Below are positions 8,303 through 23,331 of a DNA stretch of 64,000 nt, piece after piece. This DNA comes from Niveispirillum irakense DSM 11586 (lineage in GTDB: Bacteria; Pseudomonadota; Alphaproteobacteria; Azospirillales; Azospirillaceae). The translations under genes and the position numbers were made by a program. A model generated the notes under the pieces. That model did not search any database and had not been told where the DNA came from. It saw only the letters and a program-made list of their open reading frames with translations. The stretch spans positions 186,001 to 250,000 of the forward strand of contig NZ_AUCG01000022.1 in the NCBI RefSeq assembly GCF_000429645.1, given 5' to 3'. The stretch's first letter is position 1. The number at the start of each line of letters is the position of its first letter.

Positions 8303-10414
8303 ATGAGGAATTTGAAGCGGCTGATGCTGCTGGGTATTGCGACAGGGGCTACAATGGTCCCGGTCGCGTATGGTCAGGACATAGCCTTGGAAGAGATTGT
8401 GGTCACCGGATCGCGGCTGTCCGCCACAATTGAGACTTTCCCTGGGTCCTACACGGTCGTGGGCCGCAAGGATCTGGAGGACCAGTTATCGACGACGGCC
8501 GATATCGGGTCGGTCCTGGCCAACATGGTGCCCGGCATCGCCGCATCCAACGGCACCGCCGCCAATGTGGAACAAAGCCTGCGCGGCCGTCCCCTGCGCG
8601 TCTTCATCGACGGTATCCCTGTATCTAACCCGCTGCGTGATGGCGGCCGCGACCTGCGTTTGATCTCTCCTGCCGTTATCGGCTCGATTGAGGTGATCCG
8701 TGGCGCCTCGGCCCTGTATGGACAGGGTGGTGCCGGCGGTATCGTGAACTACATCACCAAAGACGCACCCGCGACGCAGGAATTCCGCTTCAAGACGGAG
8801 ATCGGGACCAGCCTCTCGACAGAGCATCTGGCCGACAGCGCCCGCCCCAGCATCTCCCAGAGTGCGTCTGGCGCCATCGGTGGCTTTGATGTCAACCTGA
8901 ACGGTTCCTATGAGCGGATGAATGGTCAATTCGATGCCGATGGTGACCGTCTTGCCCCCGATCCGCACAATTTCGGCGGCATCGCCGACAGCAACATCTA
9001 TAACCTGTTCGCCAAGCTGGGCTATTCCTTCGGCGACCAGCGCGTCGAAGCCATGGTGAACTATTATCAGCAAAAGCAGGACACCAATTACATCTCCGTC
9101 AGCGGCAATATCGCCAAGGGCATCAAGGAGACGGCGGTCAAGGGCATGGCCGATCCCCGCGCACTGGACCCGGAAAACCGCAACACCATCGCGTCCCTGG
9201 CTTATGAGAATGGCGACATTCTCGGTTCTGCCCTGAATACCAAGCTCTATTACCTGGAAAATTACAGTGTCTTCTCCTTCGATGCGGCGCGGCTGGGCGG
9301 GACCCAGACCACCATCACGTCGGAAAAGATCGGCTGGCAGACCGATTTCACTACCAAGCTGGATGATTGGGGCCTGGACGGTGGTACAGCGCTGTGGGGC
9401 TTCGACATTGCCCGCGATACCACTGAACAGCCGCTGATCCCGCTGACCGACAAGCCCGGTGATGGGCGCACCTTCACGCCACCGCTGAAGCAGATGAACT
9501 ATGCTGCCTTCATCCAGCTGGACGTGCCGGTGACCGACTGGTTCACCCTGCGCGCCGGCATCCGGCACGATGAATTCAAGATGAAAATCGATGATTTCGT
9601 GGCCGGCCTGAGTAATGTGAAGGTCGCGGCGGGTGAGCTGGATTACAGCGCCACGCCGGTCAATATCGGCGGCACGCTGCATGTCCTGCCGGAGGCGGAA
9701 ATCTTCGGCGGCTTTTCCCAGGGCTTCTCCATTCCCGACATCGGCGCGCCCTTGCGCCGCGTGACGGCAAAGAACCTGGATAATTTCGATCCCAAGCCGC
9801 AGCTGGTGAATAATTACGAAATCGGCCTGCGCGGATCGGTTCTCGATATCGGCTATACGGTGGCCTATTTCATCAGCAAGTCCAAATACGGCACCGATTT
9901 CGTGATCGACACCGTGAACCCGACAGAAGCCGCAACCCTGCGTGAGAAGGAACGTATCCACGGGATTGAGGCGACCCTGTCCGGCAAAATCGGTGACAGC
10001 ACAAGCTGGGGCGGTAGTTTCGCTTGGTCGGAGGGCAAACGCGACGCCGACCATGATGGCAAGGTTGACACGCCTCTGACCGGTCGCCGCATCGGACCGG
10101 AACAGTATAATGCCTGGCTGGAACAGGAATTCACCGCTGACTGGATGGGCCGCGTACAGGTCAACCGCACCGGGTCGCGCAACAAGTTCCCCAATGCCAA
10201 GATCAACGACTTCTATACGGGCCACGTGCGTCCCGTGACGCGTGTCGATGCCTCCACCCAGTACCGCATGAACAATCTTCTGTTCACGGTGGGTGTGAAC
10301 AACCTGTTCAACAACGACTACTATTCAGTTACTTCCCAGATGATCAACCGCGACCAGCTTTACAGCAAGGCGGAGGGCCGGACCCTCTTCCTGAAAATGT
10401 CTGCGGAATACTGA
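8303..10414 (+). CDS. TonB-dependent outer-membrane receptor opening the ethanolamine-lyase cluster
   Basis: A 703-residue receptor. The signal peptide MRNLKRLMLLGIATGATMVP (residues 1-20) continues to a cleavage site near Gln24. The plug (about 30-150) has EEIVVTGSRL, then LRVFIDGIPV and GSIEVIRGASALYGQGGAGGIVNY, the classical plug end. The rest is a 22-strand barrel ending in an aromatic C-terminus (LKMSAEY). It imports a ligand too large or scarce for porins using TonB energy. The upstream in-frame ATG at 8282 is rejected because GGGGG at 8290-8294 precedes ATG 8303 at good spacing and the signal peptide starts cleanly there. It is the first gene of a 15-kb co-directional cluster and lies just downstream of a repeated operator motif. 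The ligand is not known. Confidence 0.92.
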   Translation: MRNLKRLMLLGIATGATMVPVAYGQDIALEEIVVTGSRLSATIETFPGSYTVVGRKDLEDQLSTTADIGSVLANMVPGIAASNGTAANVEQSLRGRPLRVFIDGIPVSNPLRDGGRDLRLISPAVIGSIEVIRGASALYGQGGAGGIVNYITKDAPATQEFRFKTEIGTSLSTEHLADSARPSISQSASGAIGGFDVNLNGSYERMNGQFDADGDRLAPDPHNFGGIADSNIYNLFAKLGYSFGDQRVEAMVNYYQQKQDTNYISVSGNIAKGIKETAVKGMADPRALDPENRNTIASLAYENGDILGSALNTKLYYLENYSVFSFDAARLGGTQTTITSEKIGWQTDFTTKLDDWGLDGGTALWGFDIARDTTEQPLIPLTDKPGDGRTFTPPLKQMNYAAFIQLDVPVTDWFTLRAGIRHDEFKMKIDDFVAGLSNVKVAAGELDYSATPVNIGGTLHVLPEAEIFGGFSQGFSIPDIGAPLRRVTAKNLDNFDPKPQLVNNYEIGLRGSVLDIGYTVAYFISKSKYGTDFVIDTVNPTEAATLREKERIHGIEATLSGKIGDSTSWGGSFAWSEGKRDADHDGKVDTPLTGRRIGPEQYNAWLEQEFTADWMGRVQVNRTGSRNKFPNAKINDFYTGHVRPVTRVDASTQYRMNNLLFTVGVNNLFNNDYYSVTSQMINRDQLYSKAEGRTLFLKMSAEY

Positions 10415-10482
10415 TCCGACCGTCCCGATCTGGCAGCGGCGTTCGCTGCACGCCTGCATCGGGCCGATCCCTCCCGACATGG

Positions 10483-11349
10483 ATGACAAGAATGACTCTG
10501 CCCGTAAACGGCGCGGAACGGGGCTTTACGCCCTATGATATCGGCAGGACGCCGGCAACGGCCTGTCGTATCGACCAACGTTTCTCCTACTGCCTTTATG
10601 TGCCCTCCCGGCTGGTGGAAAACCCGGTCGGCGGGCGCATCCTGGCCGTAATCCATGGCACGGATCGCGGCAATCAGGCGCTACGGGACCTGTTTATCCC
10701 CTATGCGGAGGCGACGGGCAGCGTCATTCTAGCCCCGTTATTCCCTTGCGGGATCGGCGAGCCGCTGGAACGGGACAATTACAAATACATTGCCTACCAG
10801 GGCATCCGCTTCGACCATCTACTGTTGGACATGGTAGCGGAAGTCGCGGCGCGCTATGGCGTGGAAGCCGAGCGGTTCGACCTGTTCGGTTTCTCCGGCG
10901 GGGCGCATTTTGCCCACCGCTTCCTTTATCTGCATCCTGGCCGGCTGCGTGCCGTGTCGGTCGGGGCGCCAGGATCGCCCACTTTGCTGGATACCAACCA
11001 TCGCTGGTGGGTAGGCGTGGCCGATATGGAGCAACGGTTCGGCGTACCGCTGGACCTGGATGCAATGCGGCAGGTCCGGGTGCATCTGGCCGTAGGGTCA
11101 GATGATACCGACACCTGGGAAATCACCCATGCCCCCGGTTCCCGCCATTGGATGGAAGGCGCCAACGATGCCGGGGTGACACGGGTGGATCGTATACACA
11201 CGCTGGCCGGCAACCTGCGGGAAAATAGCATGAATGTGCGGCTGGATGTTCTGGACGGGGTGCGCCATTCCCGCGACGCGCTGGTCGCGGCGGCCATCAC
11301 TTTCCTGAACGGTTTAGCGGCGGAGGGCGACAGCGATGTTCAGACCTAA
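10483..11349 (+). CDS. Alpha/beta-hydrolase (esterase-like)
   Basis: A 288-residue hydrolase with the oxyanion-hole strand ILAVIHGT (53-60), a nucleophile elbow GFSGG at 136-140 (Ser138) and a late His in DGVRHSRD (about 266) as the likely general base. It has no signal peptide, so it should act in the cytoplasm on imported material, most plausibly on an ester. The fold is clear; the substrate is inferred only from its place between a TonB receptor and an aldolase. Its last 14 nt overlap the next gene, indicating tight co-expression. Confidence 0.8.
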   Translation: MTRMTLPVNGAERGFTPYDIGRTPATACRIDQRFSYCLYVPSRLVENPVGGRILAVIHGTDRGNQALRDLFIPYAEATGSVILAPLFPCGIGEPLERDNYKYIAYQGIRFDHLLLDMVAEVAARYGVEAERFDLFGFSGGAHFAHRFLYLHPGRLRAVSVGAPGSPTLLDTNHRWWVGVADMEQRFGVPLDLDAMRQVRVHLAVGSDDTDTWEITHAPGSRHWMEGANDAGVTRVDRIHTLAGNLRENSMNVRLDVLDGVRHSRDALVAAAITFLNGLAAEGDSDVQT

Positions 11350-12111: not shown

Positions 12112-13233
12112 ATGAAGCAGGACCGATCACCCACCACCCTTTCCCCCTCCTGTCCCGTGTCGCGCCGCCGAGTGCTGTCCGGCCTTGCCGCCGCCGCCCT
12201 CCTGCCCACCGCCGCCCGTGCCGATGATCTAGTCGCCGCATCAAAGACGGAAAACGGGTTGCTGATCTACTCGATCATGGCCGAGTATAACTGGCGGCCG
12301 CTGCTGCGCGGGTTCAATGCGCTCTATCCCTGGATCAAGGTCAATTGCCTGGACATGGGCCCATCGGAAGTGTTCGAGCGTTATTATGCCGAAACCTCCG
12401 TCAGCCGGCCGTCGGCCGACCTTATCGTGTCCAGCGCGCCCGATGCCTGGATGCGCTTTGCTGCCAAGGGCGGCATCGGCGCCCATGTCAGCCGGGAAGA
12501 AGCCAGCCTGCCCGCCTGGAGCCGGCCCCTGCCCGGCCTCTACACCCTGTCGGCCGACCCGATGGTGATGATCTACAACAAGCTTCTGCTAAAGCCCGAC
12601 CAGTATCCCGACGGGTTGAACCGGCTGGTGGCCCTGGCGACGGAAAACCCGCTGAAGTTCCGCAAGCGTGTCACCACCTATGACGCCGCTGCCCATGCGC
12701 TGGCCTACGCCGTCCACTGGGCCGCCATCACCAGCGGCCGTCCCGGCGGCTGGGACCTGATGCAGCGCCTGTCGCCGGCGGTGCGGGTGGAAAGCGGCGG
12801 GGCGGCGATGATGGAGAAGGTGACGACCGGCGAATATCTGGTCGGCTTCAACGTCTCGGCCGTCACCGTCTGGCCGCAGATGGCGACCAAGGGAAGGTCG
12901 GAGATTGTGGACTGGACCCTGGATAAGGACGGTACGGTGCTGGTGCCGCGCGGCATGGCGGTCACAGCCGGCAGCCGCAGCCCCGCCAGCGCCCGGCTGA
13001 TGCTGGATTACCTGCTGTCGCATGACGGACAGGTGGCGGCTTCCCAGGGCGGGCTGATGCCCTATCGGGCCGACGTGCGCGCCGATGAGGTGCCGTACCT
13101 GACCTATGATGGTCTGGTACGGCGGCTGGGGGGCGAACAGAATATCGTCCATGTCGGCTACGACCCCACCATGCTGGACCATTACCAGGACTTCATCGCC
13201 CGCTGGAACGCGACCTTCAAGGTGCGGCGGTAA
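12112..13233 (+). CDS. ABC transporter substrate-binding protein, family 1 (AfuA/iron-type)
   Basis: A 373-residue periplasmic binding protein. The N-terminus carries a twin-arginine signal (SRRRVLSGLAAAALL, cleavage after ARA near residue 39). The mature part has the two-lobe family-1 pattern with LLIYSIMAEYNWRPLLRGF, ADLIVSSAPDAWMRFAAKG and VMIYNKLLLKPD. It resembles Fe3+/2-aminoethylphosphonate/sugar-phosphate binding proteins of the AfuA/FutA type. The following permease and ATPase match that class. Tat export is less usual for this family and suggests folding or metal loading before export. The ligand cannot be read from sequence. Confidence 0.85.
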   Translation: MKQDRSPTTLSPSCPVSRRRVLSGLAAAALLPTAARADDLVAASKTENGLLIYSIMAEYNWRPLLRGFNALYPWIKVNCLDMGPSEVFERYYAETSVSRPSADLIVSSAPDAWMRFAAKGGIGAHVSREEASLPAWSRPLPGLYTLSADPMVMIYNKLLLKPDQYPDGLNRLVALATENPLKFRKRVTTYDAAAHALAYAVHWAAITSGRPGGWDLMQRLSPAVRVESGGAAMMEKVTTGEYLVGFNVSAVTVWPQMATKGRSEIVDWTLDKDGTVLVPRGMAVTAGSRSPASARLMLDYLLSHDGQVAASQGGLMPYRADVRADEVPYLTYDGLVRRLGGEQNIVHVGYDPTMLDHYQDFIARWNATFKVRR

Positions 13234-13344: not shown

Positions 13345-15057
13345 ATGTCCATGGCGGAACCCCAATCCCGATTTTTCCGGCCCGACCGGGCGCTGCTGAT
13401 CCAGGCGGCGGCGGCGCTGGCGACGCTGGCCCTGGTGCTGGGGCCGCTGGTGCCCGTGCTGTGGCAGTCGCTGCTGGACCGCCCGCTCTATGAGGCGGCG
13501 CCGCTGTTCAGCCTGGATAATTACATAAGGCTGTTCGGCAATCCCCGCTTTCACGAGGCGCTGGGCAATTCGGTGCTGCTGGCACTGCTGTCCACGCTGA
13601 TCGCGACGGTTCTGGGCGTGAGTTTTGCGCTGTTCCTGGAACGCACCGACATGCCGGGGCGCGGTTTGCTGCGCAACCTGACCCTCTGGCCCATGTATGT
13701 GTCGCAACTGGTCCTGGCCTTCGCCTGGTTCATCCTGTACGGCCCTTCCGGCTATATCACCCTGGCGGTGGAACGGCTGGCCGGCGTGCCGCTGTGGGAC
13801 ATGTATACGATCCTGGGCATGGGGCTGCTGGCCGGCACCTCACAGGCGCCCGTGGTCTATCTGTTCTGCTCCTCGTCGGCCCGCATGGCCGACGCCACGC
13901 TGGAGGATGCGGCCCGTTCAGTGGGCGCCGGCCCTTTACGGGCACTCTGGTCCGTGTCCCTGCCCCTGATGAGGCCATCCATCATCTATGCCGCCTTGCT
14001 GACCTTCATCGGTTCGCTGGAGATGCTGGCCGTTCCCCTGGTCTTCGGCAAGCCGGTGGGGTTGGAGTTCTTCACCACCTTCCTCTATATGGAGGGTCTG
14101 GGCGCCATCACCCCGGATTACGGGCTGATCGGGGCGGCGGCGACCCTGCTGCTGGTCGTGATCTCCGTTCTGCTGGTGATCCAGGGCCTCCTGCTGCGCC
14201 AGTCCAAGCGTTTCGTCACGGTACGCGGCAAGGCCCAGCGGCCCAAGCTGGCGCCCATCGGCCGGGTCGGCTGGGTCGTCTGCGCATTGATGTGCCTTTA
14301 TACGGCGCTTGTCCTGCTGCTGCCGCTGGCCGGGATCGTGCTGCGCTCGGTCACCAGTTTCCTCACCCCCCTGATGTCGCCTTTCGACCTGCTGACGCTG
14401 GACCATTTCGAGGTTCTGTTCGGGTACGAGGCCTATCGCCGCTCCATCGTCAATTCGGTGATCATCGCCAGTTTCGGTGGCGCGCTGGCCACCCTGTTCG
14501 TGGCCCTGGTGGCCCTGGTGGCGCACCGGTCGGATTTCCGCTTCCGCCGCGCCCTGGAATTCGTAGCGCTTTATCCCCGCGCCATGCCGGGCATCATCGC
14601 CGGCATCGGCATGTTCTGGGCCATGCTGCTTTTACCCTTTGCCCATGTGCTGCAAGGCACGATCTGGCTGCTGATGCTGGCCTTCACCATGCGCGGCATT
14701 CCCATGGCCTTCGGCGCCCTGTCGCCCACCTTGCACCAGATCGGCCGCGAACTGGACCAGGGGGCGCGGTCGGCCGGGGCCGACTGGTGGACCACGGTCC
14801 GCCTGATCATTTTCCCCCTGATGAAGCCGGCGCTGTTTTCCGCCTACGTGCTGCTGTTCCTGTCCTTTTTGAAAGAATATGCCGCCGCCGTTTTCCTGTT
14901 CGCACCCGGGGCAGAAATCATCGGCACGACGATGCTGACCTTCTGGACCAATGGCAGCACGGGACCGGTCGCAGCGCTCTCCGTCATTCAGCTCGCCATC
15001 ACGGCCCTGTTCGTGACGCTGGCGCGCCGCAGCTTGAGGACCAACAAAGATGTCTGA
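13345..15057 (+). CDS. ABC transporter permease with two fused membrane domains (FbpB/AfuB-like)
   Basis: A 570-residue inner-membrane permease made of two homologous halves with about six helices each (roughly 20-290 and 305-565). This is the single-chain arrangement of Fe3+-type importers. EAA-loop motifs that dock the ATPase are visible in both halves: LEDAARSVGAGPLRALWSVS near 188-207 and LDQGARSAGADWWTTVRLII near 470-489. It starts 111 nt after the binding-protein gene and overlaps the ATPase gene by 8 nt. Confidence 0.9.
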   Translation: MSMAEPQSRFFRPDRALLIQAAAALATLALVLGPLVPVLWQSLLDRPLYEAAPLFSLDNYIRLFGNPRFHEALGNSVLLALLSTLIATVLGVSFALFLERTDMPGRGLLRNLTLWPMYVSQLVLAFAWFILYGPSGYITLAVERLAGVPLWDMYTILGMGLLAGTSQAPVVYLFCSSSARMADATLEDAARSVGAGPLRALWSVSLPLMRPSIIYAALLTFIGSLEMLAVPLVFGKPVGLEFFTTFLYMEGLGAITPDYGLIGAAATLLLVVISVLLVIQGLLLRQSKRFVTVRGKAQRPKLAPIGRVGWVVCALMCLYTALVLLLPLAGIVLRSVTSFLTPLMSPFDLLTLDHFEVLFGYEAYRRSIVNSVIIASFGGALATLFVALVALVAHRSDFRFRRALEFVALYPRAMPGIIAGIGMFWAMLLLPFAHVLQGTIWLLMLAFTMRGIPMAFGALSPTLHQIGRELDQGARSAGADWWTTVRLIIFPLMKPALFSAYVLLFLSFLKEYAAAVFLFAPGAEIIGTTMLTFWTNGSTGPVAALSVIQLAITALFVTLARRSLRTNKDV

Positions 15058-16138
15058 GGTTGTCGTCGATCGTCTGAACAAGCATTACGGCCCGGTGCAG
15101 GCCCTGCATGAGGTCAGCCTGCATGTCCCGGACGGGGAATTCCTGACCCTGCTGGGCCCGTCGGGCTGCGGCAAGTCCACGACCCTGTTCGCCATCGCCG
15201 GGCTGGACAGCCCGTCCGGCGGGCGCATCACGGTGGGCGGGCGCGATTTCTATAACGGGGCCACGGGCCTGGACCTGCCGCCGGAAAAGCGCAATCTGGG
15301 GCTGGTCTTCCAATCCTATGCCCTGTGGCCGCACATGAATGTGCGCCAGAACCTGGCGTTCCCCCTGCGCCTGCGCAAGGTGGGCAAGAAGGAACAGGAG
15401 GCGCGGATCGAGGAGGCGCTGGCCTTGGTGGAAATGGGCGCCTTCATCGATCGTTATCCGCACGAATTGTCGGGCGGGCAGCAGCAGCGCGTGGCCCTGG
15501 CCCGCACCCTGGTCTTCCGCCCCTCCCTGTTGCTGCTGGATGAGCCCTTGTCCAACCTGGATGCCAAGCTGCGCATCAAGGCGCGATCCTGGCTGAAGCA
15601 GTTGCAGCGCCAGTTGGGCCTGACCACGCTATACGTCACCCATGACCAGTCCGAGGCCCTGGCGCTGTCCGACCGGATCGTGGTGATGGAAAAGGGCCGT
15701 GTGTCGCAACTGGGCACGCCGGAGGAAATCTATCGCCGGCCCGCCAACGCCTTCGTCGCCGATTTTGTCGGCGCCAGCAATTTCCTGCCCGGTGAGGTGG
15801 TGGACCGCAACGCCGCCGCCGGCACGGCCAAGGTGAAGCTGGCGGGCGGCGATATCCTGACCGCACTTTGGCCCGACATATCCGCCCCGCCCGCCGACAG
15901 CCTGCTGACGGTGCGGCCCGAACATATCGGCCTGTCGGCGGAACCACCCCTGCCCGGCCCTGATATCAACATCCTGGCCGGCCGTATCCTGGAACGCGCC
16001 TATCTGGGGGCCCGCCTGCTCTATACGCTGGATTGCGGCCATGGGCTGGTGCTGATGGCGGAGACGGAGACAAGGGTGGAAGGCGATCATGCCTGGCTGC
16101 GCTTTTCCGTCGATGACACGCTGCTGGTCCGGGCCTGA
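15050..16138 (+). CDS. ABC transporter ATP-binding protein (FbpC/AfuC/PotA-like)
   Basis: A 362-residue ATPase. Walker A is GPSGCGKST at 36-44, signature LSGGQQQR near 139, Walker B LLLLDEPLSNLD near 159, and the switch His in YVTHDQSEALAL. The C-terminal third (about 240-362) is a TOBE/MalK-type regulatory domain. It energises import through the upstream dual permease. It is followed after only 5 nt by eutB, so transporter and ethanolamine lyase are one transcription unit. Confidence 0.92.
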   Translation: MSEVVVDRLNKHYGPVQALHEVSLHVPDGEFLTLLGPSGCGKSTTLFAIAGLDSPSGGRITVGGRDFYNGATGLDLPPEKRNLGLVFQSYALWPHMNVRQNLAFPLRLRKVGKKEQEARIEEALALVEMGAFIDRYPHELSGGQQQRVALARTLVFRPSLLLLDEPLSNLDAKLRIKARSWLKQLQRQLGLTTLYVTHDQSEALALSDRIVVMEKGRVSQLGTPEEIYRRPANAFVADFVGASNFLPGEVVDRNAAAGTAKVKLAGGDILTALWPDISAPPADSLLTVRPEHIGLSAEPPLPGPDINILAGRILERAYLGARLLYTLDCGHGLVLMAETETRVEGDHAWLRFSVDDTLLVRA

Positions 16139-16143: not shown

Positions 16144-17541
16144 ATGTACCGGATCGATCTGGCCGGCACCCGCCATTGCTTCCCCGACCTGAAGGCGCTG
16201 TTGGCGGCGGCCACGCCGCTGCGGTCGGGGGACCAGTTGGCCGGCATCGCAGCGCAAAGCGAGGAGGCGCGGGTAGCCGCCCGTCACATCCTGGCCGACC
16301 TGCCGCTGAAGACCTTCCTGTCTGAGACGGTCGTGCCGTATGAGGATGACGAGGTCACCCGCCTGATCATCGACAGGCACGACCCCGCCGCCTTCGCCCC
16401 CGTGGCCAGCCTGACGGTGGGGGAATTCCGCGACTGGTTGTTGAACGACAAGGTGCGGGCGCGGGAATTGTCGGCACTCTCCCCCGGCCTGACGGCGGAA
16501 ATGGTGGCCGCCTTGTCCAAGCTGATGCGCAACCAGGATTTGATCGCCGTAGCGCGCAAGGCGCGCGTGGTCAGCCGGTTTCGTACTTCCATCGGTCTGC
16601 GCGGGCGGCTGGCGGTGCGGTTGCAGCCCAACCACCCGACCGACGATCCGGCGGGTATCGCGGCCTCCATCCTGGACGGGTTGCTGCATGGAAGCGGTGA
16701 TGCCGTCATCGGCATCAACCCGGCCACCGACAATGTGGATGGCGCCATCACCCTGCTGCACCTGATCGACGATCTGCGGCTGCGTTACGCGATCCCCACG
16801 CAAAGCTGCGTGCTGACCCATGTCACCAATTCCCTTCAGGCCATCGAACGCGGCGCCCCCGTCGATCTGGTGTTCCAGTCGGTGGCGGGGACCGAGGGGG
16901 CCAATCGCGGCTTCGGCATCGACCTTGCCCTGCTGGCAGAGGCGCATGACGCCGCCCTGTCGCTGAAACGCGGCAGCATCGGCCAGGATGTGATGTATTT
17001 CGAAACCGGCCAGGGCAGCGCCCTGTCCGCCGGCGCCCATCACGGCGTTGACCAGCAGACGCTGGAGGTGCGGGCCCAGGCCGTGGCACGGGCCTTCAAT
17101 CCGCTGCTGGTCAACAGCGTCGTCGGCTTCATCGGGCCCGAATATCTTTATGACGGGCGGCAGATCATCCGTGCGGGGTTGGAGGATCACTTCACGGGCA
17201 AGCTGCTGGGCCTGCCGATGGGGGTGGATGTCTGCTACACTAACCATGCCGAGGCCGACCAGAACGACATGGACAATCTGCTGACCCTGCTGGGTGTCGC
17301 GGGCGTGTCCTTTGTCATCGGTGTGCCGGGTGCCGATGACATCATGCTGAATTACCAGAGCACATCGTTCCACGACGCGCTTTATGTCCGCGATGTGCTG
17401 GGTGTGCGTCCCGCACCGGAGTTCGAGGCCTGGCTGGGCAATATGGGCATGCTGGATACGCACGGCCGCGTGGCGCCGCGCGATATCGCCACCCTGCCGC
17501 TGGCCCGCGCCATCGCCGACCAGAGGTTCATGACGCCATGA
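16144..17541 (+). CDS. eutB: Ethanolamine ammonia-lyase large subunit
   Basis: A 465-residue catalytic subunit of the adenosylcobalamin enzyme that converts ethanolamine to acetaldehyde and ammonia. Residues known to contact substrate in this family are recognisable: Arg and Gln in VRLQPNHPTDD, Asn in VIGINPATDN, Glu in AGTEGANRG and YFETGQGSALS, and Asp in GVDVCYTNHAEAD. The length matches canonical EutB (about 453). Its stop overlaps eutC by 4 nt. There is no eutA reactivase, no acetaldehyde dehydrogenase and no microcompartment gene nearby, so this is a compact, non-microcompartment ethanolamine step embedded in an import/hydrolysis cluster. Confidence 0.97.
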   Translation: MYRIDLAGTRHCFPDLKALLAAATPLRSGDQLAGIAAQSEEARVAARHILADLPLKTFLSETVVPYEDDEVTRLIIDRHDPAAFAPVASLTVGEFRDWLLNDKVRARELSALSPGLTAEMVAALSKLMRNQDLIAVARKARVVSRFRTSIGLRGRLAVRLQPNHPTDDPAGIAASILDGLLHGSGDAVIGINPATDNVDGAITLLHLIDDLRLRYAIPTQSCVLTHVTNSLQAIERGAPVDLVFQSVAGTEGANRGFGIDLALLAEAHDAALSLKRGSIGQDVMYFETGQGSALSAGAHHGVDQQTLEVRAQAVARAFNPLLVNSVVGFIGPEYLYDGRQIIRAGLEDHFTGKLLGLPMGVDVCYTNHAEADQNDMDNLLTLLGVAGVSFVIGVPGADDIMLNYQSTSFHDALYVRDVLGVRPAPEFEAWLGNMGMLDTHGRVAPRDIATLPLARAIADQRFMTP

Positions 17542-18365
17542 GCCAGGTGCCCGCCGACGATCCGCTGGCCCGGCTGCGGGCCGCCACCCAGGCCCGGATC
17601 GGCCTGGGCCGTGCCGGCCACGCCCTGCCCACCCGCGCCTGCCTGTCCTTCGATCTGGGGCATGCCCGTGCCCGCGACGCGGTCTGGACACCGCTGGATA
17701 CGGATGCGGTGACGGCAAAGGTGGATGGCTGGCCAGTGTGCATGGTCCACAGCCAGGCGCCCGACCGCGCCACCTATCTGCGCCGCCCCGACCTGGGACG
17801 TAACCTGGCGGGGGCGGCGGACCTGCCCTCCGGCCCGTTCGACCTGTCGATCATCATCGGTGACGGGCTGTCTTCCCGCGCGGCGCAGGCCCATGGCGCC
17901 GCCCTGGCGCTGGATCTGCGCCGCCGGCTGCCCGGCTGGTCCCTGGCGCCGCTGGTGCTGGCACAGCAGGCGCGGGTGGCACTGGGCGACCCCATCGCCG
18001 CCGCCATGGGTGCACGCTTCGCCCTGATGCTGATCGGGGAACGGCCAGGCCTGTCGGCGGCCGACAGCCTGGGCGCCTATCTGACCATCGATCCCCGGCC
18101 CGGCCGGATGGACAGCGAGCGTAACTGTGTTTCCAACATCCGCCCGCCGCACGGGCTTTCCATCGCGCAGGCCGGCGAAAAACTGGCCTGGCTGCTGATG
18201 GAGGGACGGCGGATCGGCGCCACCGGCATCGCGCTGAAGGATGCCGCCCCCACAAAGGACAGGCCCCATGTTCACCATCAATCCCATGCCGCCGATCCCG
18301 CCCGGCCCTCTGCTGGACAAGCTGTTGCAGGTGGAGACGGCGACGGTGGGGCATTTCCGCCATGA
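17538..18365 (+). CDS. eutC: Ethanolamine ammonia-lyase small subunit, with unusual C-terminal extension
   Basis: A 275-residue cobalamin-binding small subunit. Typical EutC runs are SQAPDRATYLRRPDLGR, DGLSSRAAQAHG, LMLIGERPGLSAADSLGAYL (20 residues) and ERNCVSNIRPPHG. The conserved protein ends near residue 236 (GIALKD). The frame then continues for about 39 Ala/Pro/His-rich residues (to 18365) and overlaps the next gene by 98 nt in another frame. Loss of the normal stop is the simplest explanation. ATGA overlap with eutB indicates translational coupling for the heteromeric enzyme. Confidence 0.95.
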   Translation: MSQVPADDPLARLRAATQARIGLGRAGHALPTRACLSFDLGHARARDAVWTPLDTDAVTAKVDGWPVCMVHSQAPDRATYLRRPDLGRNLAGAADLPSGPFDLSIIIGDGLSSRAAQAHGAALALDLRRRLPGWSLAPLVLAQQARVALGDPIAAAMGARFALMLIGERPGLSAADSLGAYLTIDPRPGRMDSERNCVSNIRPPHGLSIAQAGEKLAWLLMEGRRIGATGIALKDAAPTKDRPHVHHQSHAADPARPSAGQAVAGGDGDGGAFPP

Positions 18366-18933
18366 CGGCTTCATCGATCCCGCCATCCGTCTTGTCCTGC
18401 CCTGGGCACGCATCGCGGGGCCGGCCGTGACGGTACGCATCGCCGGCCCCGACAGTACCCTGCTGCACCATGCCGTCAGCAGTGCGCGGCCCGGCGATGT
18501 GCTGGTTGTTGACCGGTGCGGGGACACGCGCCATGCCTGCTGGGGCGGGGTGACGACCAACGCCGCGCGGCTGGCCGGCATCGCGGGCATCGTCATCGAC
18601 GGCCCCGCCACCGATTTTGGGGAGATTGTAAAGGCGGGCCTGCCCGTCTGGTGCCGGGGGCCGTCCGCCCTGACGACGAAGTTCCTGCCGCTCGACAGCG
18701 CCATGAATGTGCCGGTCAGCGTGGGGGGCGTGGCCATCAATCCCGGCGACCTGATCCTGGCCGATGAAAGCGGGGCCATCGTTCTGCCTCCCGATCAGGC
18801 CGAAACCGCCGCCGACCGGGCCATCGGGCTTCAGGAACGGGAGAAGCAGGTGCTGGCCCGGCTGGCGGCGGGTGAAAGGCTGGCCGATATTTCCGGCGCG
18901 TCCGATCTGATCCGGCGGGCCGGTGCAGCATGA
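18268..18933 (+). CDS. RraA-family protein (HMG/CHA aldolase-like fold)
   Basis: A 221-residue RraA-fold protein. The family core is GDVLVVDRCG (76-85), WGGVTTNAARLAGIAGIVIDG (split by residue 112) and GGVAINPGDLILADESGAIVLP. Members include 4-hydroxy-4-methyl-2-oxoglutarate/4-carboxy-4-hydroxy-2-oxoadipate aldolases, oxaloacetate decarboxylases and RNase E inhibitors. The catalytic pair is normally Arg-Asp in a DGxxRD motif. Here the run is DGPATD (111-116), so Asp116 is kept but Arg is Thr115. Enzymatic aldolase activity is therefore uncertain. The start at 18268 is chosen for AAAGGA at 18255-18260; an in-frame ATG at 18241 lacks such a site and deepens the overlap with eutC. Confidence 0.85.
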   Translation: MFTINPMPPIPPGPLLDKLLQVETATVGHFRHDGFIDPAIRLVLPWARIAGPAVTVRIAGPDSTLLHHAVSSARPGDVLVVDRCGDTRHACWGGVTTNAARLAGIAGIVIDGPATDFGEIVKAGLPVWCRGPSALTTKFLPLDSAMNVPVSVGGVAINPGDLILADESGAIVLPPDQAETAADRAIGLQEREKQVLARLAAGERLADISGASDLIRRAGAA

Positions 18934-20882
18934 CATTCCTGGGCTGGCATCGCTGGGTCGGGTTGTTCCTGGGGCTGTTCATCGCGGTCCAGGGGTTGGG
19001 GGGTACGCTGCTGCTGTTCCGGCAGCCAATCAACCACCTGCTGCATCCCGCCGCCTTCCCCCCCGCGCAGCCGGCCCTGGATGCCAATGTTGATGCCATG
19101 CGCGCCACCGGCTGCGCCATCAACCGCATCGACCTGCCCGACCGCGCCACGGACCCGTTGTTCTTCCACCTGTCCTGCAACGGCGACCCGTTCATGGCCA
19201 CGGCGGGCGGCGGGCAGGTGCTGCGGCTGGCAGCGCTGGGCGACTGGCCGATGGAATGGCTGTTCCAGTTCCACTACCGGCTGGCCGCCGGAACCCCCGG
19301 AAAGCAGGCCGTGGGCTGGATCGGCGTGGCGTTGCTGGCCCTGTGCCTGATGGGCCTGTGCATGCTGCTGCGGACCGCCCGACGGGACGGGTGGCGGGGG
19401 CTGTTGCGCCCCGGTTGGCCCACCCCCCACCTGCGCCGCTGGCGCGACCTGCATCGTGCTGCCGGCCTGTACCTTGTCCCCGTTCTGGTGTTGTTGTCCC
19501 TCACCGGCATTGGCATGGCGTGGAACCCGACGGTGACGGCGGTATTGCCCGTCACTCCACGCCCGTCGCCCCAGGTGGCGCCACGCCCGGACACTCCCCT
19601 GCTACCCCTGTCGGTGATCCTGGACAAGGCGGTGGGAGAGGCACCCAGCAGCATCCGCCTGCCCGGCGGGCATGGGCGGGTGGTGATGGTCATGCTGGGC
19701 CGGGCCGACAGCCCCGACTATGAACAATTCTGGTTTGATGGCTATGACGGCACAATGCTGGGCACCCGCCGCGCGGCGGACCGGGCGCCGGCGGACCGGT
19801 TCATGGACCTGTTCTATCCGCTGCATACGGGCAGCCTGCTGGGACCGGCGAACACCATCCTGATGCTGCTGGCCGGCCTGTCGCTGCCGGGATTTCTGGC
19901 CACAGGCCTGTTCCTCTGGTCACGGCGGCGGGGGCTGGGGACCATGCTCCTGCGTGTGTCGGACCTGTCGCGCGATGGCACCGGCGTGCTGCACATCACC
20001 CTGCGCCACCGGCTCGGCCTGCCGCTGCCCCGCTTCGGGGCGGGGGATCATGTAGATGTGCATCTGCCCAATGGGCTGGTCCGGCAATATAGCCTGTGCG
20101 GACGGCCGGGACGTCGCCTGTCCTGGCGGATCGCGGTGCGGCTGTCGGATGTCTCGGCCGGCGGGTCGGCCTGGATCCATACGCATCTGACGGTGGGCAC
20201 GGCCCTGCACCTGGGCCGCCCCCGCGCCCATTTCCCGCTGGGGACCGGTGACGGCCCCGTCCTGCTGCTGGCCGGCGGCATCGGCATCACGCCGCTTCTG
20301 TCCATGGCGTGGAACTTGTGGGAACGGGGACGCCCCTTCACGCTGCTGGTCTGTGCCCGGGACCGGGCCGCCCGGCCGTTGGCAACAGCGGTCACGGCCA
20401 CACCCCTGGCCCCGTCTGTCCGCTGGCATGAAAGCGCCACCGACGGGCGCATCGACCTTGCCGCCCTGCTGACGGCACAGGCGCCCGGCACACATCTTTA
20501 CACCTGCGGCCCCGATAGCTTCATGCGGGCGGCCCTGGATACGGCCCGCACCTTGGGCTGGTCGCCCGACCGGCTGCATTGGGAGGCGTTTGCCCCCGCC
20601 ACCCCGACCGGCCCCGCCTTCACCGCGATCCTGAATGGGAAAACCATTGCGGTGGCCGACGGGGAAAGCCTGCTCGACCGGCTTCTGGCCGAAGGCATCC
20701 CCGTTCCCCATTCCTGCCGCCGGGGCCTGTGCGGGCAATGCGTGGTGACCGTGCGATCCGGCACCGTCGATCACCGCGACAGCATTCTGACGCCCGAAGA
20801 TCACAAGGCCGGCCGCATGACCGCCTGCTGTTCCCGCGCCGCCGATGAAGGCGGTGTGCTGCATCTGTCCCTGCCCTCCTGA
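18930..20882 (+). CDS. Membrane reductase: PepSY-TM domain fused to FAD/NAD(P) reductase and [2Fe-2S] ferredoxin
   Basis: A 650-residue fusion. Residues 1-335 are a PepSY-associated membrane region with about four helices (for example WVGLFLGLFIAVQGLGGTLL at 10-29 and LIPVLVLL-like helix near 180). Residues about 340-560 are a ferredoxin-reductase module with the FAD-binding pattern RQYSLCG and NAD pocket VLLLAGGIGITPLLSM. Residues about 565-650 are a plant-type ferredoxin with Cys ligands in SCRRGLCGQC and a late CC. Electrons should flow from NAD(P)H through FAD and the cluster to the membrane part. PepSY-TM proteins next to TonB receptors are often linked to ferric-siderophore reduction; that role is an inference here. 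It overlaps the RraA-like gene by 4 nt. Confidence 0.88.
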   Translation: MTFLGWHRWVGLFLGLFIAVQGLGGTLLLFRQPINHLLHPAAFPPAQPALDANVDAMRATGCAINRIDLPDRATDPLFFHLSCNGDPFMATAGGGQVLRLAALGDWPMEWLFQFHYRLAAGTPGKQAVGWIGVALLALCLMGLCMLLRTARRDGWRGLLRPGWPTPHLRRWRDLHRAAGLYLVPVLVLLSLTGIGMAWNPTVTAVLPVTPRPSPQVAPRPDTPLLPLSVILDKAVGEAPSSIRLPGGHGRVVMVMLGRADSPDYEQFWFDGYDGTMLGTRRAADRAPADRFMDLFYPLHTGSLLGPANTILMLLAGLSLPGFLATGLFLWSRRRGLGTMLLRVSDLSRDGTGVLHITLRHRLGLPLPRFGAGDHVDVHLPNGLVRQYSLCGRPGRRLSWRIAVRLSDVSAGGSAWIHTHLTVGTALHLGRPRAHFPLGTGDGPVLLLAGGIGITPLLSMAWNLWERGRPFTLLVCARDRAARPLATAVTATPLAPSVRWHESATDGRIDLAALLTAQAPGTHLYTCGPDSFMRAALDTARTLGWSPDRLHWEAFAPATPTGPAFTAILNGKTIAVADGESLLDRLLAEGIPVPHSCRRGLCGQCVVTVRSGTVDHRDSILTPEDHKAGRMTACCSRAADEGGVLHLSLPS

Positions 20883-20893: not shown

Positions 20894-21721
20894 ATGACCA
20901 CGCTTCCCGTCGCCTGTGTGCAAAGCACCGCGACCTCCGATCCGCACCATAACCTTGCCGCCGTCACGCCGCTGATCCGCCAGGCGGCGGCGGGCGGGGC
21001 GCGGCTGATCTGTCTGCCGGAAGCGTTTGATTATCTGAACCCGTCCTTCGCAGCGCTGCGCGATTATGCGCTGCCGGAGGATGACCATCCCGCCCTGATT
21101 CTGCTGTCAAAACTGGCGCAGGAATTGTCGGTCTGGCTGCTGGCCGGGTCGGTGTCGGTGAAGCTGGCCGATGGGCGCATGGCCAACCGGTCGGCGCTGA
21201 TCGGGCCGGATGGCGCCATCAATGCCCGCTATGACAAGATCCACCTGTTCGATGTCGACCTGCCCGACGGATCGCGCTTCCGCGAGAGCGATTTCTACCG
21301 CCCCGGTGACCGGGCCGTGGTGGCGGACGGGCCGGACGGCGCCCGGATCGGCATGGCCATCTGCTATGATGTGCGGTTCCCGCACCTGCACCGCGCGCTG
21401 GCGCAGACAGGGGCACAGATCATCACCGTCCCCGCCGCGTTCAGCTCCATGACCGGGCCATTGCATTGGGAGGTGCTGTTGCGGGCGCGGGCCATCGAAA
21501 CCGGCTGTTTTGTGCTGGCCCCGGCGCAGTGCGGGGACAATTACCCTGGCCGCCGGTCACACGGCCAAAGCCTGATCATCGATCCCTGGGGCCGCGTCCT
21601 GGGCCGGCTGGGTGATGAACCGGGCGTGCTGTCGGCCAGTTTGGACCTGGAACAGGTCGCCGCCTTCCGCGCCGCCATCCCGTCGCCCGTCACCAACAAC
21701 CCGTTCCGGATCGGAGCCTGA
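20894..21721 (+). CDS. Carbon-nitrogen hydrolase (nitrilase superfamily, Nit/omega-amidase type)
   Basis: A 275-residue amidase-type enzyme. The Glu-Lys-Cys triad of the superfamily is visible: Glu43 in CLPEAFDYL, Lys114 in ARYDKIHLFDVD and Cys157 in GMAICYDVRFP. The motif context KIHLFDVDLPDG matches the Nit1/Nit2 (deaminated-glutathione amidase and omega-amidase) branch. Omega-amidases act on 2-oxoglutaramate-type amides, which would be compatible with a ketoglutarate-containing substrate. GAAGGAG at 20880-20886, 7 nt before ATG, supports the start. Confidence 0.88.
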   Translation: MTTLPVACVQSTATSDPHHNLAAVTPLIRQAAAGGARLICLPEAFDYLNPSFAALRDYALPEDDHPALILLSKLAQELSVWLLAGSVSVKLADGRMANRSALIGPDGAINARYDKIHLFDVDLPDGSRFRESDFYRPGDRAVVADGPDGARIGMAICYDVRFPHLHRALAQTGAQIITVPAAFSSMTGPLHWEVLLRARAIETGCFVLAPAQCGDNYPGRRSHGQSLIIDPWGRVLGRLGDEPGVLSASLDLEQVAAFRAAIPSPVTNNPFRIGA

Positions 21722-21724: not shown

Positions 21725-22600
21725 ATGCTGACCATCACCCGCCGCATCACCTTGCGCGAAGGCCATGAGGTCGTGGCCTATCTCCATGGCGAGGGGGACC
21801 GCACCCTGTTCCTGGCCAATGGCGGCCCTGGCCTGCCCAACCGTTACCTGCGCGAACCGCATCTGCGACTGGCGGAGAAGGGCTATCGCATCGTGGGCTG
21901 GGACCAGTTGGGGTGTGGGGCCAGCGACCGGCCCACCGATCCCGGCCTCTGGACCCTGGAACGCTATGTCGATGAAGCCGAACAGGTTCGCCGCGCGCTG
22001 GACCTGGGGCCGGTGGATTTCCTTGGCCATTCCTGGGGGACTTGGCTCGGCACCGAATATTGCCTGACATATCCTGAGGCCGTGCGTTCCTACATCATCG
22101 CCGACGGGGCCTGCGACATCCCGCATCTGGTGGGCGAACTGAACCGCCTGCGTCTGGCGCTGGGGTCGGAAACGGTGACGATGATGGTGGCGCATGAGGC
22201 GGCGGGAACCCTGGACCATCCGGAATATCAGGCCGCCGTCACCTTGCTGAATTATCGCCATGTCTGCCGGCTGCGGACGTGGCCGGAGCCGCTGACTGCA
22301 TCGCTGGCCGATTGGAACATGGGACCCTATGTCACCATGCAGGGCCCCAATGAATTCACCTATACCGGTAATATGAAGGATTGGAACCGTGTGCCCACCA
22401 TGGGGAGCATCAAAGTGCCATGCCTTGTCCTTGCCGGCGCGCATGACGAACTGACGCCCGCCTGCTCCCTGCGTATGCATATGGCTTTGCCCGACAGCCG
22501 TATCCGCATTTTCGAAAACAGCTCCCACATGCCGTTTTATGAGGAGTCTGACGCCTATTTCACCGAACTGGAGGCATTCCTGGCAGCGGTTGCGGTTTGA
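21725..22600 (+). CDS. Proline-iminopeptidase-like alpha/beta-hydrolase (peptidase S33 family)
   Basis: A 291-residue hydrolase. The S33 hallmarks are NGGPGLPN at 32-39 (oxyanion hole), GWDQLGCGASDRP at 58-70 and nucleophile elbow GHSWGT at 101-106 (Ser103), followed by a helical cap. The C-terminal acid and base are likely in GAHDELTPA and NSSHMPFYE. Family members cleave N-terminal Pro or other small residues from peptides and amides. It sits 3 nt after the amidase gene and is the last enzyme before the regulator. An aminoacyl-amide bond in the imported molecule is a plausible target. Confidence 0.88.
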   Translation: MLTITRRITLREGHEVVAYLHGEGDRTLFLANGGPGLPNRYLREPHLRLAEKGYRIVGWDQLGCGASDRPTDPGLWTLERYVDEAEQVRRALDLGPVDFLGHSWGTWLGTEYCLTYPEAVRSYIIADGACDIPHLVGELNRLRLALGSETVTMMVAHEAAGTLDHPEYQAAVTLLNYRHVCRLRTWPEPLTASLADWNMGPYVTMQGPNEFTYTGNMKDWNRVPTMGSIKVPCLVLAGAHDELTPACSLRMHMALPDSRIRIFENSSHMPFYEESDAYFTELEAFLAAVAV

Positions 22601-22620
22601 GGTGATGGGACAACCGGCTC

Positions 22621-22637
22621 TTGGCGATTAGATTGGC
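22621..22637. promoter_or_regulatory. Second copy of the cluster operator motif, upstream of the GntR-type gene
   Basis: TTGGCGATTAGATTGGC (22621-22637) matches 8229-8245 at 15 of 17 positions. A further ATTGGCTACC lies at 22674-22683, right before the regulator ATG. The same element thus flanks both ends of the cluster, consistent with autoregulation and control of the receptor promoter. Confidence 0.6.
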
Positions 22638-22689
22638 GGTCTGCTAATATGTTGTGCAGAAATCAGATAACAAATTGGCTACCGCAACC

Positions 22690-23331
22690 ATGGCAACCAT
22701 CACGGAAAACCCCCGCGAAAAACAAGCCGAACCCGCCAGCTTGGTCAGCCGGCTGGAAGCGGACCTGCTGGGTGGGGTTTTCCGGCCGGGGGAATGGCTG
22801 AAGCAAACTGATATCGAAACGAATTACGACGCCCATCGTTTCGATGTCAGAATGGCCTTGCTGGACCTGAAGACGCGGCAATTGCTGGAACATGTGCCCA
22901 ATCGCGGCTACCGCGTCGCCAGCCTGTCTCAGCAGGACCGGGAGGAACTGATCGAAGCGCGCACCGTGCTGGAGGTTGCGGCTGCGCGGCGCGTGGTGGA
23001 ACGGGCGACAGATGCGGATGTGGCGGAACTGGATCAGATCGTGGCGGAGTTCGACGCCAACATGGAAGACGCGGACCTTCCCCTGTTGCGCGCCCTGAAT
23101 GCCAAGTTCCATGACCGGCTTTACGCCATCTGCGGCAATCGCGTGCTGATGGAGGAGATCAAGGCGTTGCGCCATCGCGGATTGCCCGGCGTGCGCGGCT
23201 GGCGTGCCACATCGGCCATTCAGCGGTCCAACCGCGACCATGGGGAAATGGTGGATATGATCCGTACCCGCAATGTCGATGGTCTGGTGCAGAGCATTGA
23301 ACGGCACCTGAACCGTTGGCGAGAGGGTTGA
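22690..23331 (+). CDS. GntR-family (FCD) transcriptional regulator
   Basis: A 213-residue regulator with an N-terminal winged helix (about 15-75; LVSRLEADLLGGVFRPGEWL) and a helical C-terminal FCD ligand domain (about 82-205; LIEARTVLEVAAARRVV, LNAKFHDRLYAICGN, HGEMVDMIRTRN). FCD members sense small organic acids, often through a bound metal. ATG 22690 is preferred over GTG 22654 because the longer form would run through the operator-like repeats. It closes the cluster and is its most likely regulator. Confidence 0.88.
   Translation: MATITENPREKQAEPASLVSRLEADLLGGVFRPGEWLKQTDIETNYDAHRFDVRMALLDLKTRQLLEHVPNRGYRVASLSQQDREELIEARTVLEVAAARRVVERATDADVAELDQIVAEFDANMEDADLPLLRALNAKFHDRLYAICGNRVLMEEIKALRHRGLPGVRGWRATSAIQRSNRDHGEMVDMIRTRNVDGLVQSIERHLNRWREG

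What the first reader, a model, noticed from the sequence alone, without database searches (positions are those of the whole stretch)
8303..23331. Candidate new system: import and dismantling of an ethanolamine-containing chelator or amide
One strand carries, with 3-14 nt junctions through most of it, a TonB receptor, an esterase-like hydrolase, an HpcH/HpaI aldolase, an AfuABC-type ABC transporter with Tat binding protein, EutBC, an RraA-like protein, a PepSY-FAD-[2Fe-2S] membrane reductase, an omega-amidase-like nitrilase, a proline-iminopeptidase-like hydrolase and a GntR-FCD regulator. Ethanolamine lyase is not normally combined with a TonB receptor. There is no eutA, microcompartment or acetaldehyde dehydrogenase. 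Hypothesis: the substrate has ester and amide bonds to ethanolamine. Vibrioferrin (citrate, ethanolamine, alanine, 2-oxoglutarate) and achromobactin contain such a unit, and each enzyme class here has a matching bond: ester hydrolase, amidases, EutBC, aldolases, and a ferric reductase to release iron. Non-siderophore ethanolamine amides or phospho-compounds are alternatives.
Basis: partly seen in the sequence, partly recalled or inferred. Interest (0 to 1): 0.85.

Follow-up and report, generated by a model that had tools for sequence, protein, structure and literature searches.

The report
Operon for eating an ethanolamine-containing chelator
A 15-kb block of 13 genes, kept together in several Niveispirillum bacteria, looks like a complete kit for importing an iron-binding molecule built around ethanolamine, taking its iron and digesting it as food; the best match is the siderophore vibrioferrin, but this is inferred, not yet tested.

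Summary
Observation confirmed. Thirteen genes lie on one strand (TonB receptor, esterase, HpaI aldolase, Tat binding protein, ABC transporter, EutBC, RraA, PepSY reductase, nitrilase, Pip-type peptidase, GntR-FCD) in a Niveispirillum genome. Block 8207-23326 matches two relatives at 88% of bases, with nothing alike around it; all 13 genes show purifying selection. An operator conserved in four genomes sits twice before the receptor gene and once before gntR; no classical Fur box was seen. IucA/IucC siderophore synthetases are found in 0 of 11 genus genomes, so the ligand is probably foreign. Pip groups with peptidases in the AapA (alanine aminopeptidase) position; the nitrilase is nearest deaminated-glutathione amidase. 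A related cluster (G227) keeps receptor, esterase, GntR, Pip and RraA but has GS-like, ALDH and Fe-ADH genes in place of EutBC. Citryl ester, 2-oxoglutaryl amide, alanyl-ethanolamide and ethanolamine are the cleavage points of vibrioferrin. Best reading: TonB capture, reductive iron release and cytosolic catabolism of vibrioferrin or an analogue. That ligand is inferred; the aldolases' role and the receptor's ligand are untested. My literature searches showed no such operon.

The parts
8217..8251 (+). Two operator copies, ATTGGCTACCAT and ATTGGCTACTAT, 23 nt apart; candidate GntR sites in the operon promoter
   Evidence: Conserved in window, G068, G070, G073; 2 found in the window, mean 0.30 expected, 4 of 100 shuffles reached 2
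8303..10414 (+). TonB-dependent receptor (ATG 8282 also in frame)
   Evidence: PF00593/PF07715; below TIGR01783 cut-off (181.2 of 223.5 bits); 95% in G068 and G070
10483..11349 (+). alpha/beta hydrolase (Est), proposed to cut the citryl ester
   Evidence: GFSGG at residue 136; nearest PDB PahZ1/LpqC; 40% relative in L044
11336..12100 (+). HpcH/HpaI-type aldolase
   Evidence: PF03328; 129 bits to HpaI 4b5s, 74 bits to 4tv5
12112..13233 (+). Periplasmic binding protein with Tat-like motif SRRRVL
   Evidence: PF01547/PF13416; motif by inspection; nearest PDB 7f6p, labelled iron-binding
13345..15057 (+). Fused ABC permease, two transmembrane units
   Evidence: PF00528, 2 stretches
15050..16138 (+). 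ABC ATPase with TOBE domain
   Evidence: PF00005, PF08402
16144..17541 (+). EutB, ethanolamine ammonia-lyase large subunit
   Evidence: NF011649 701 bits (cut-off 554); alignment to 2qez and motifs RLQPNHP, GINP, YFETGQG, GFIGPEY, GVDVCYTNH, MLNYQ
17538..18365 (+). EutC, small subunit
   Evidence: NF003971 276 bits (cut-off 230)
18268..18933 (+). RraA-like aldolase/decarboxylase (ATG 18241 and 18286 also in frame)
   Evidence: PF03737; nearest PDB 3noj, CHA aldolase/oxaloacetate decarboxylase
18930..20882 (+). PepSY_TM - FAD/NAD - [2Fe-2S] membrane reductase
   Evidence: PF03929 158 bits, PF00111 57 bits; FAD/NAD part only below cut-offs; CRRGLCGQC at residue 596
20894..21721 (+). Nitrilase-family amidase, proposed to cut a 2-oxoglutaryl amide
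   Evidence: PF00795; best NCBIfam NF043013 deaminated glutathione amidase, 203 bits, below cut-off 500; PE, KIH and CYD motifs around Glu43, Lys115, Cys157
21725..22600 (+). Pip/AapA-type aminopeptidase, proposed to free ethanolamine from its aminoacyl amide
   Evidence: TIGR01250 247 bits (cut-off 167.65); 60-64% to ABC-linked Pip copies, 34-38% to the other copy; tree
22674..22683 (+). Third operator copy, just before the likely gntR start
   Evidence: Conserved in 4 of 4 genomes compared
22690..23331 (+). GntR-FCD regulator of the block
   Evidence: PF00392/PF07729; operator position argues for start 22690

Best explanation
A self-contained operon for capturing and eating a foreign, ethanolamine-containing iron chelator, most likely vibrioferrin or a close relative. 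(1) The TonB receptor takes the ferric complex into the periplasm. (2) The PepSY-FAD-[2Fe-2S] protein passes electrons from cytosolic NAD(P)H across the inner membrane, reduces Fe(III) and frees the iron. (3) The Tat-exported binding protein and ABC transporter carry the ligand, whole or in part, into the cytosol. (4) Est hydrolyses the citryl-O-ethanolamine ester; the nitrilase removes the 2-oxoglutaryl cap from alanine; the Pip/AapA enzyme cuts alanyl-ethanolamide; EutBC turns ethanolamine into acetaldehyde and ammonia. (5) HpaI and RraA handle the oxo-acid/aldehyde products (for example pyruvate + acetaldehyde aldol chemistry, oxaloacetate decarboxylation); this is the weakest step. (6) The GntR-FCD protein senses ligand or product and controls the block through the conserved operator. 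Shown by computation: gene content, unit conservation, purifying selection, operator conservation, family placements. Inferred: every reaction, the iron, the ligand and the order.
For: Unit: homology to G068 and G070 runs from 8207 to 23326 at about 88% of bases and stops; 13 of 13 genes have dN/dS 0.045-0.21 in both comparisons with no internal stop; SBP orthologue in 4 of 11 genus genomes, PepSY orthologue in 5 of 11, own genome counted. Local control: operator x2 + x1 in 4 of 4 genomes; upstream best Fur-box match 10 of 19, the commonest value in 300 random stretches. Foreign ligand: IucA/IucC in 0 of 11 genus genomes, control positive in E. coli and Haloferax volcanii. Chemistry: vibrioferrin = ethanolamine coupled to alanine, 2-oxoglutarate on the alanine amine, citrate ester on the ethanolamine hydroxyl (passages of PMC5577590). 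Matching enzymes: Nit1 hydrolyses deaminated glutathione, made of 2-oxoglutarate, Cys and Gly (passage of PMC7041631), and our nitrilase's best model is that amidase; Pip lies on the side of the ABC-linked copies (branch support 100/100), the position of AapA, which is most active on N-terminal alanine (passages of PMC4981722); EutBC over both cut-offs. Relatives: L044 shares TBDT (37%), Est (40%), GntR (51%), Pip and RraA (63% each) but carries GS-like, ALDH and Fe-ADH genes, resembling the GlnA4 ethanolamine route (passages of PMC6529630). Receptor relatives near PepSY_TM genes in 3 of 9 chosen contexts and near siderophore/iron genes in 3 others. A TonB-PepSY xenosiderophore operon is known in Caulobacter (passages of PMC13001220).
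Against: HpaI and RraA have no evident job on vibrioferrin. The ABC transporter is Afu/Pot-like, not the Fec-type one I recall for vibrioferrin; its binding protein is nearest to solved proteins labelled iron-binding, so it may carry iron and not the ligand, and its genomic relatives lie with CoA-transferase/CoA-ester-lyase genes. The receptor is below every NCBIfam cut-off and only about 26% identical to IutA, so its ligand is open. The nitrilase is far below the dGSH-amidase cut-off. PipA, the other copy, also cleaves alanine, so the AapA grouping alone does not fix the bond. RraA-nitrilase pairs occur at loci without a receptor or EutBC relative (6 of 14 RraA loci), so they may serve other acid amides. 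L044's GS-like protein is over no cut-off and polyamine catabolism is not excluded. No Fur box means no sign of iron control. Outside Niveispirillum only a partial cluster was found (G227; the receptor reached E <= 1e-100 in 2 non-genus genomes of the 385 class genomes, with at most two candidates scored per genome).
Confidence: 0.42

Rival explanations
1. Same machinery, different ethanolamine conjugate: achromobactin-type siderophore, a siderophore photoproduct or hydrolysate, or a metal-bound plant-derived ethanolamine amide such as HEHEAA.
For: Pip belongs to the group of peptidases beside LuxR-family regulators and peptide transporters; PipR responds to the ethanolamine derivative HEHEAA (passages of PMC7301841 and PMC10134790). 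The Thalassospira receptor relative lies in a cluster with three IucA/IucC-family genes, HpaI and RraA, which resembles the achromobactin type from recall.
Against: No LuxR-type regulator in the cluster; HEHEAA is small and should need no TonB receptor; achromobactin has no alanine (recalled), leaving the AapA-type enzyme without a clear bond.
Confidence: 0.25
2. Uptake of a carboxylate or peptide-like metal chelate whose amine part is not ethanolamine-specific; EutBC serves general nitrogen salvage or another amino alcohol such as 2-aminopropanol.
For: RraA-nitrilase pairs (TRAP transporter confirmed in two) and RraA-Est pairs with peptide transporters occur without an EutBC relative nearby; a second eutBC exists in the genome, so this one could differ; L044 could be polyamine catabolism.
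Against: EutB keeps every motif checked against the ethanolamine enzyme 2qez, and EutBC shows purifying selection in both complete copies compared.
Confidence: 0.2
3. 2-Aminoethylphosphonate or another phosphono/phospho-ethanolamine compound.
For: ABC parts and regulator have 2-aminoethylphosphonate models among their best NCBIfam hits (PhnT2 354 bits, PhnU2 154 bits, phnR_burk 82.5 bits).
Against: All are below their cut-offs (457.7, 593.25, 271.5); no phosphonatase, PhnW/PhnX, C-P lyase or phosphatase among the family hits of the block.
Confidence: 0.04
4. Chance neighbours or an assembly artefact; not one pathway.
For: Modules occur apart in other bacteria.
Against: The block is conserved in order and with sharp ends in other species, at different flanks, with shared operators and purifying selection on all 13 genes.
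Confidence: 0.03

Closest known systems
hiuABC xenosiderophore operon, Caulobacter crescentus (PMC13001220, passages read)
   Same: TonB receptor plus inner-membrane PepSY protein (FoxB-like) taking iron from foreign siderophores
   Different: hiu is Fur-regulated and consists of receptor, PepSY protein and a small membrane protein; here a GntR-FCD operon with hydrolases, EutBC, aldolases and an ABC importer, and PepSY fused to FAD and [2Fe-2S] parts
PipR/AapA-F plant-responsive system, Pseudomonas GM79 (PMC4981722, passages read; HEHEAA ligand from passages of PMC7301841 and PMC10134790)
   Same: AapA-position aminopeptidase family; the signal is an ethanolamine derivative
   Different: LuxR solo and peptide ABC transporter there; no TonB receptor, EutBC or reductase described in the passages
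eut operon (microcompartment type; recalled)
   Same: EutBC
   Different: No eutA, shell protein or EutE found in the block; coupled to TonB import and hydrolases
GlnA4 ethanolamine pathway, Streptomyces (PMC6529630, passages read)
   Same: Possible counterpart in the related L044 cluster (GS-like, dehydrogenase, ALDH)
   Different: Not in the window, which has EutBC; in Streptomyces the alcohol step is ascribed to a short-chain dehydrogenase, in L044 the gene is of the Fe-ADH family
Siderophore hydrolases and desferrioxamine degradation by Azospirillum (now Niveispirillum, recalled) irakense (title in a reference list)
   Same: Siderophore breakdown, reported in the same genus
   Different: Hydroxamate substrates without ethanolamine (recalled); I read nothing on the genes

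Membership tests
Ethanolamine ammonia-lyase (EutBC) | EutB and EutC over curated cut-offs | tested here: met
   NF011649 701/554, NF003971 276/230 bits
Ethanolamine ammonia-lyase (EutBC) | Substrate/cofactor-site motifs kept (residue roles recalled) | tested here: met
   Alignment to 2qez, motif positions
Microcompartment eut operon | eutA, shell proteins, EutE in the operon | tested here: not met
   None among the 17 ORFs scanned, 4761-26652
TonB siderophore receptor (TIGR01783) | Score over the model cut-off | tested here: not met
   181.2 of 223.5 bits; plug and barrel domains are present
Vibrioferrin receptor PvuA | Groups with PvuA in a tree | not testable with these tools
   No PvuA sequence reached; the Vibrio locus fetched looked like aerobactin by ORF sizes
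PepSY ferri-siderophore reductase (FoxB/HiuB type) | PepSY_TM domain | tested here: met
   PF03929 158.3 bits, cut-off 28.8
PepSY ferri-siderophore reductase (FoxB/HiuB type) | Reduces a ferric chelate; heme-ligand histidines | not tested
   Histidines listed in part but not mapped to FoxB
AapA/PipA peptidases | TIGR01250 over cut-off and placement with ABC-linked copies | tested here: met
   246.7/167.65 bits; same side of a 100/100 branch in the tree; GM79 AapA itself was not in the tree
Deaminated glutathione amidase (NF043013) | Score over cut-off | tested here: not met
   202.9 of 500 bits; best-scoring model all the same
HpaI equivalog (TIGR02311) | Score over cut-off | tested here: not met
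   146.2 of 368.8 bits
2-aminoethylphosphonate transport/regulation | PhnS/U2/T2, phnR_burk over cut-offs | tested here: not met
   All below
Fur-regulated iron operon | Fur box upstream | tested here: not met
   Best match 10 of 19 upstream of the receptor, the commonest value in 300 random stretches; only the enterobacterial consensus (recalled) was tested, no alphaproteobacterial Fur/Irr motif

The most novel reading that the evidence does not exclude
A dedicated bacterial operon that both strips iron from a foreign siderophore (vibrioferrin or kin) and consumes its whole carbon-nitrogen skeleton, recruiting B12-dependent ethanolamine lyase to a TonB system; related clusters swap the amine module while keeping the receptor, esterase, peptidase, RraA and GntR core, making siderophore catabolism a modular nutrient trait.
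Probability: 0.35. Interest if true: 0.87.

Novelty: new variant of a known kind. Interest (0 to 1): 0.7.

Why it matters
What becomes of siderophores in nature is poorly known (abstract start of PMC12364333, says so of their environmental fate), and I saw no gene set for eating one. An operon that couples iron theft to full catabolism would turn a shared iron carrier into food, giving a direct genetic handle on siderophore turnover and on cheating. It would also give ethanolamine lyase a role outside membrane-lipid turnover.

Tried and rejected
B12 import for EutBC as the receptor's role: no RNA family match at gathering threshold (hence no cobalamin riboswitch) in the window; BtuB models score 55-60 bits against 181 for the siderophore model. 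SbnG-like citrate synthase as HpaI's role: 129 bits to HpaI 4b5s against 74 bits to 4tv5, which I recall as SbnG. Phosphonate use: see rivals. Polyamine reading of L044 was my first one and is not excluded. Clean empty site: the left flank is in G066 at 84%, but neither the block nor the right flank was found beside it in the 19.9 kb fetched, so no empty site is shown. Receptor placement against PvuA: failed. The binding-protein structure job was not finished at any of 14 polls; no model was used and no fold search was run. Operator search in the whole genome with AWTTGGCTACYA found only the first receptor site, and its control 1 match; the pattern was too strict to hit the other two sites, so it says nothing on a wider regulon. 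The promoter scan of 8000-23800 found no sigma-70-type site, 3.0 expected. Neighbours of the receptor relatives L092 and L093 were not annotated. The role of the second eutBC was not resolved. Genome searches scored only the best few candidates per genome (2, 6) and drew samples of class and phylum, so absences there are weak.

Literature: 10 searches of the held open-access library. 'Ethanolamine ammonia-lyase' with 'TonB-dependent receptor' gave one paper, on cockroach gut genomes (listing only). No listed title or abstract start describes an operon for vibrioferrin catabolism, but the lists were cut (25 of 158, 10 of 1,291), and subscription journals are mostly absent. Papers are known to me only as passages found by term search (PMC4981722, PMC7301841, PMC10134790, PMC5577590, PMC6529630, PMC13001220, PMC7041631, PMC12364333); no section or whole text was read.

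Full report
What is there. Between 8282 and 23331 one strand carries 13 genes: TonB receptor, alpha/beta hydrolase (Est), HpcH/HpaI aldolase, Tat binding protein, fused ABC permease, ABC ATPase, EutB, EutC, RraA-like protein, PepSY-FAD-[2Fe-2S] protein, nitrilase, Pip-family hydrolase and GntR-FCD regulator. Placements are firm for EutB, EutC and the Pip subfamily (over NCBIfam cut-offs); the other proteins are recognised at domain level (Est not even that) and fall below the NCBIfam cut-offs shown, so their substrates are open.

It is one unit. Two other Niveispirillum genomes (G068, G070) hold all 13 genes in the same order at 83-96% protein identity; a third (G073) holds them on two contigs broken in eutB. 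DNA homology between the window and G068 or G070 runs from 8207, just before the first operator, to 23326, at the end of gntR, at about 88% identity, and nothing else in the 44 kb of each compared matches the window except one 33-base hit. G068 and G070 share flanks with each other but not with the window. The block therefore sits in a different place in the window's strain. All 13 genes show dN/dS of 0.045-0.21 against both relatives with no internal stop. The binding-protein orthologue is in 4 of 11 genus genomes and the PepSY orthologue in 5 of 11, the own genome counted; the fifth, G071, shows only the PepSY gene and a permease end in the 36 kb fetched, a decayed copy.

Control. The near-palindrome ATTGGCTACYAT occurs twice, 23 nt apart, before the receptor gene, and its first ten bases once before gntR, in 4 of 4 genomes compared; three of the four hold one more copy, on the other strand, in the PepSY-nitrilase gap, which the window lacks. 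In the window the two promoter copies are the only matches at up to one mismatch; 0.30 are expected and 4 of 100 shuffles reached two, so the case rests on conservation. The obvious owner is the GntR-FCD protein of the block (inference). A classical Fur box is not seen. This looks like substrate-controlled catabolism rather than iron-starvation control.

The ligand is probably foreign. IucA/IucC synthetases are found in 0 of 11 genus genomes, while the control rings in E. coli and Haloferax volcanii. Receptor relatives: 36% to a Picosynechococcus plasmid siderophore receptor, 31% to a Thalassospira receptor inside a siderophore synthetase cluster that also holds HpaI and RraA relatives (33% each), about 26% to IutA. 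Of nine contexts of receptor relatives that I chose to inspect, three have a PepSY_TM gene near the receptor (L043, L063, L091), three have siderophore or iron genes (L061, L062, L064), one is the related catabolic cluster L044, and two (L092, L093) show no other relative of a window gene and were not annotated. A TonB-PepSY pair that takes iron from xenosiderophores is established in Caulobacter (PMC13001220, passages).

The amine. L044, from another alphaproteobacterial family (G227), has the receptor (37%), Est (40%), GntR (51%), Pip (63%) and RraA (63%), but no EutBC relative on the 13.6-kb contig; it has a glutamine-synthetase-like protein, an aldehyde dehydrogenase and an iron-type alcohol dehydrogenase, with an HDAC-like amidohydrolase, an M17 peptidase and a class III aminotransferase. 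GS-like enzyme plus two dehydrogenase steps is the plan of the GlnA4 ethanolamine route, although there the alcohol step is ascribed to a short-chain dehydrogenase (PMC6529630, passages). The three L044 proteins are over no NCBIfam cut-off and polyamine catabolism is not excluded.

The bonds. Vibrioferrin is citrate ester-linked to the hydroxyl of ethanolamine, whose amine is coupled to alanine, whose amine carries 2-oxoglutarate, later cyclised (PMC5577590, passages). Without citrate it is 2-oxoglutaryl-alanyl-ethanolamide, which shares its backbone with deaminated glutathione, 2-oxoglutaryl-cysteinyl-glycine (comparison mine). The nitrilase's best model is deaminated glutathione amidase (203 bits, cut-off 500) and its best solved relatives are a nitrilase homolog 2 and NitFhit. 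The Pip protein is 60-64% identical to peptidases next to LuxR-family and peptide-transporter genes; in 4 of 4 loci with two Pip genes it matches the transporter-linked copy and not the other (34-38%), and the tree puts it on the same side of a 100/100 branch, with L044's Pip as nearest kin (91/99). In Pseudomonas GM79 the transporter-linked copy is AapA, most active on N-terminal alanine; PipA, the other, prefers proline but also takes alanine (PMC4981722, passages). The same system senses HEHEAA, an ethanolamine derivative (PMC7301841 and PMC10134790, passages), though a close homologue of its transporter elsewhere does not bind it and Kosakonia PsrR did not respond. Est, nitrilase, Pip and EutBC would thus take vibrioferrin apart bond by bond. 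Est, nitrilase and Pip show no signal peptide by inspection, so the breakdown is placed in the cytosol, after transport by the ABC system.

What does not fit. HpaI and RraA are not needed for vibrioferrin. RraA relatives elsewhere sit with a nitrilase in 6 of 14 loci fetched (TRAP transporter confirmed by Pfam in two, L074 and L075; similarly sized ORFs in others untested) and with a Pot-type ATPase (45-49%) in 5 of 14, one of which also has HpaI; those 14 were drawn from the 17 places outside Niveispirillum besides L044, and several contigs are short. The closest binding protein-permease-ATPase sets (40/50/55%) lie with CoA-transferase, CoA-ester lyase, hydroxyacid dehydrogenase and RraA genes, pointing to hydroxy or oxo acids. 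The binding protein's best solved relatives are labelled iron-binding, so it may carry iron. The acid part may differ from plain citrate. The Est family elsewhere keeps company with peptide transporters and amidohydrolases, with RraA in 3 of 6 plasmid loci viewed.

Verdict. Unit, conservation, local operator, lack of IucA/IucC and EutBC identity are supported by computation. 'Ethanolamine-containing chelator taken up through TonB, de-ironed and catabolised' is supported indirectly (I would say about 0.65 for that wider claim); 'vibrioferrin' is the best single candidate. In the listings searched no such operon was seen.

Noticed in passing
L058 (G068:C1:282001-298000) 3522-11635; L059 (G070:C6) 3010-12192: A paralogous cluster: in L058 another TonB receptor next to a PepSY-FAD-[2Fe-2S] fusion (36%), a GntR-FCD regulator and an SBP_bac_5 oligopeptide-type binding protein; in L059 the fusion (37%) and two ATPase relatives were seen. 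Suggests a wider theme of TonB plus PepSY-fusion catabolic clusters.
   Followed up: partly
L062 (Thalassospira marina plasmid pCSC3H3) 9854-22001: An IucA/IucC siderophore biosynthesis cluster that contains an RraA-like and an HpcH/HpaI gene beside a receptor of the window's family; the role of RraA there is unclear.
   Followed up: no
L057 (same contig as L037) 5607-6086: In G073 a second RraA-like reading frame (31% identical) lies between Pip and gntR.
   Followed up: no
L074, L075, L076, L080, L082, L083: A nitrilase-RraA gene pair recurs in several alphaproteobacterial families, with TRAP transporter genes confirmed in two; looks like an uncharacterised acid-amide pathway.
   Followed up: partly
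L056 713-3103 (G071): Decayed copy: only a permease end and an intact PepSY-fusion gene remain of the block.
   Followed up: partly
window 8207 and 23326: Sharp ends of homology with relatives; insertion sequences or tRNA genes at the ends were not looked for, so the way the block moved is unknown.
   Followed up: partly
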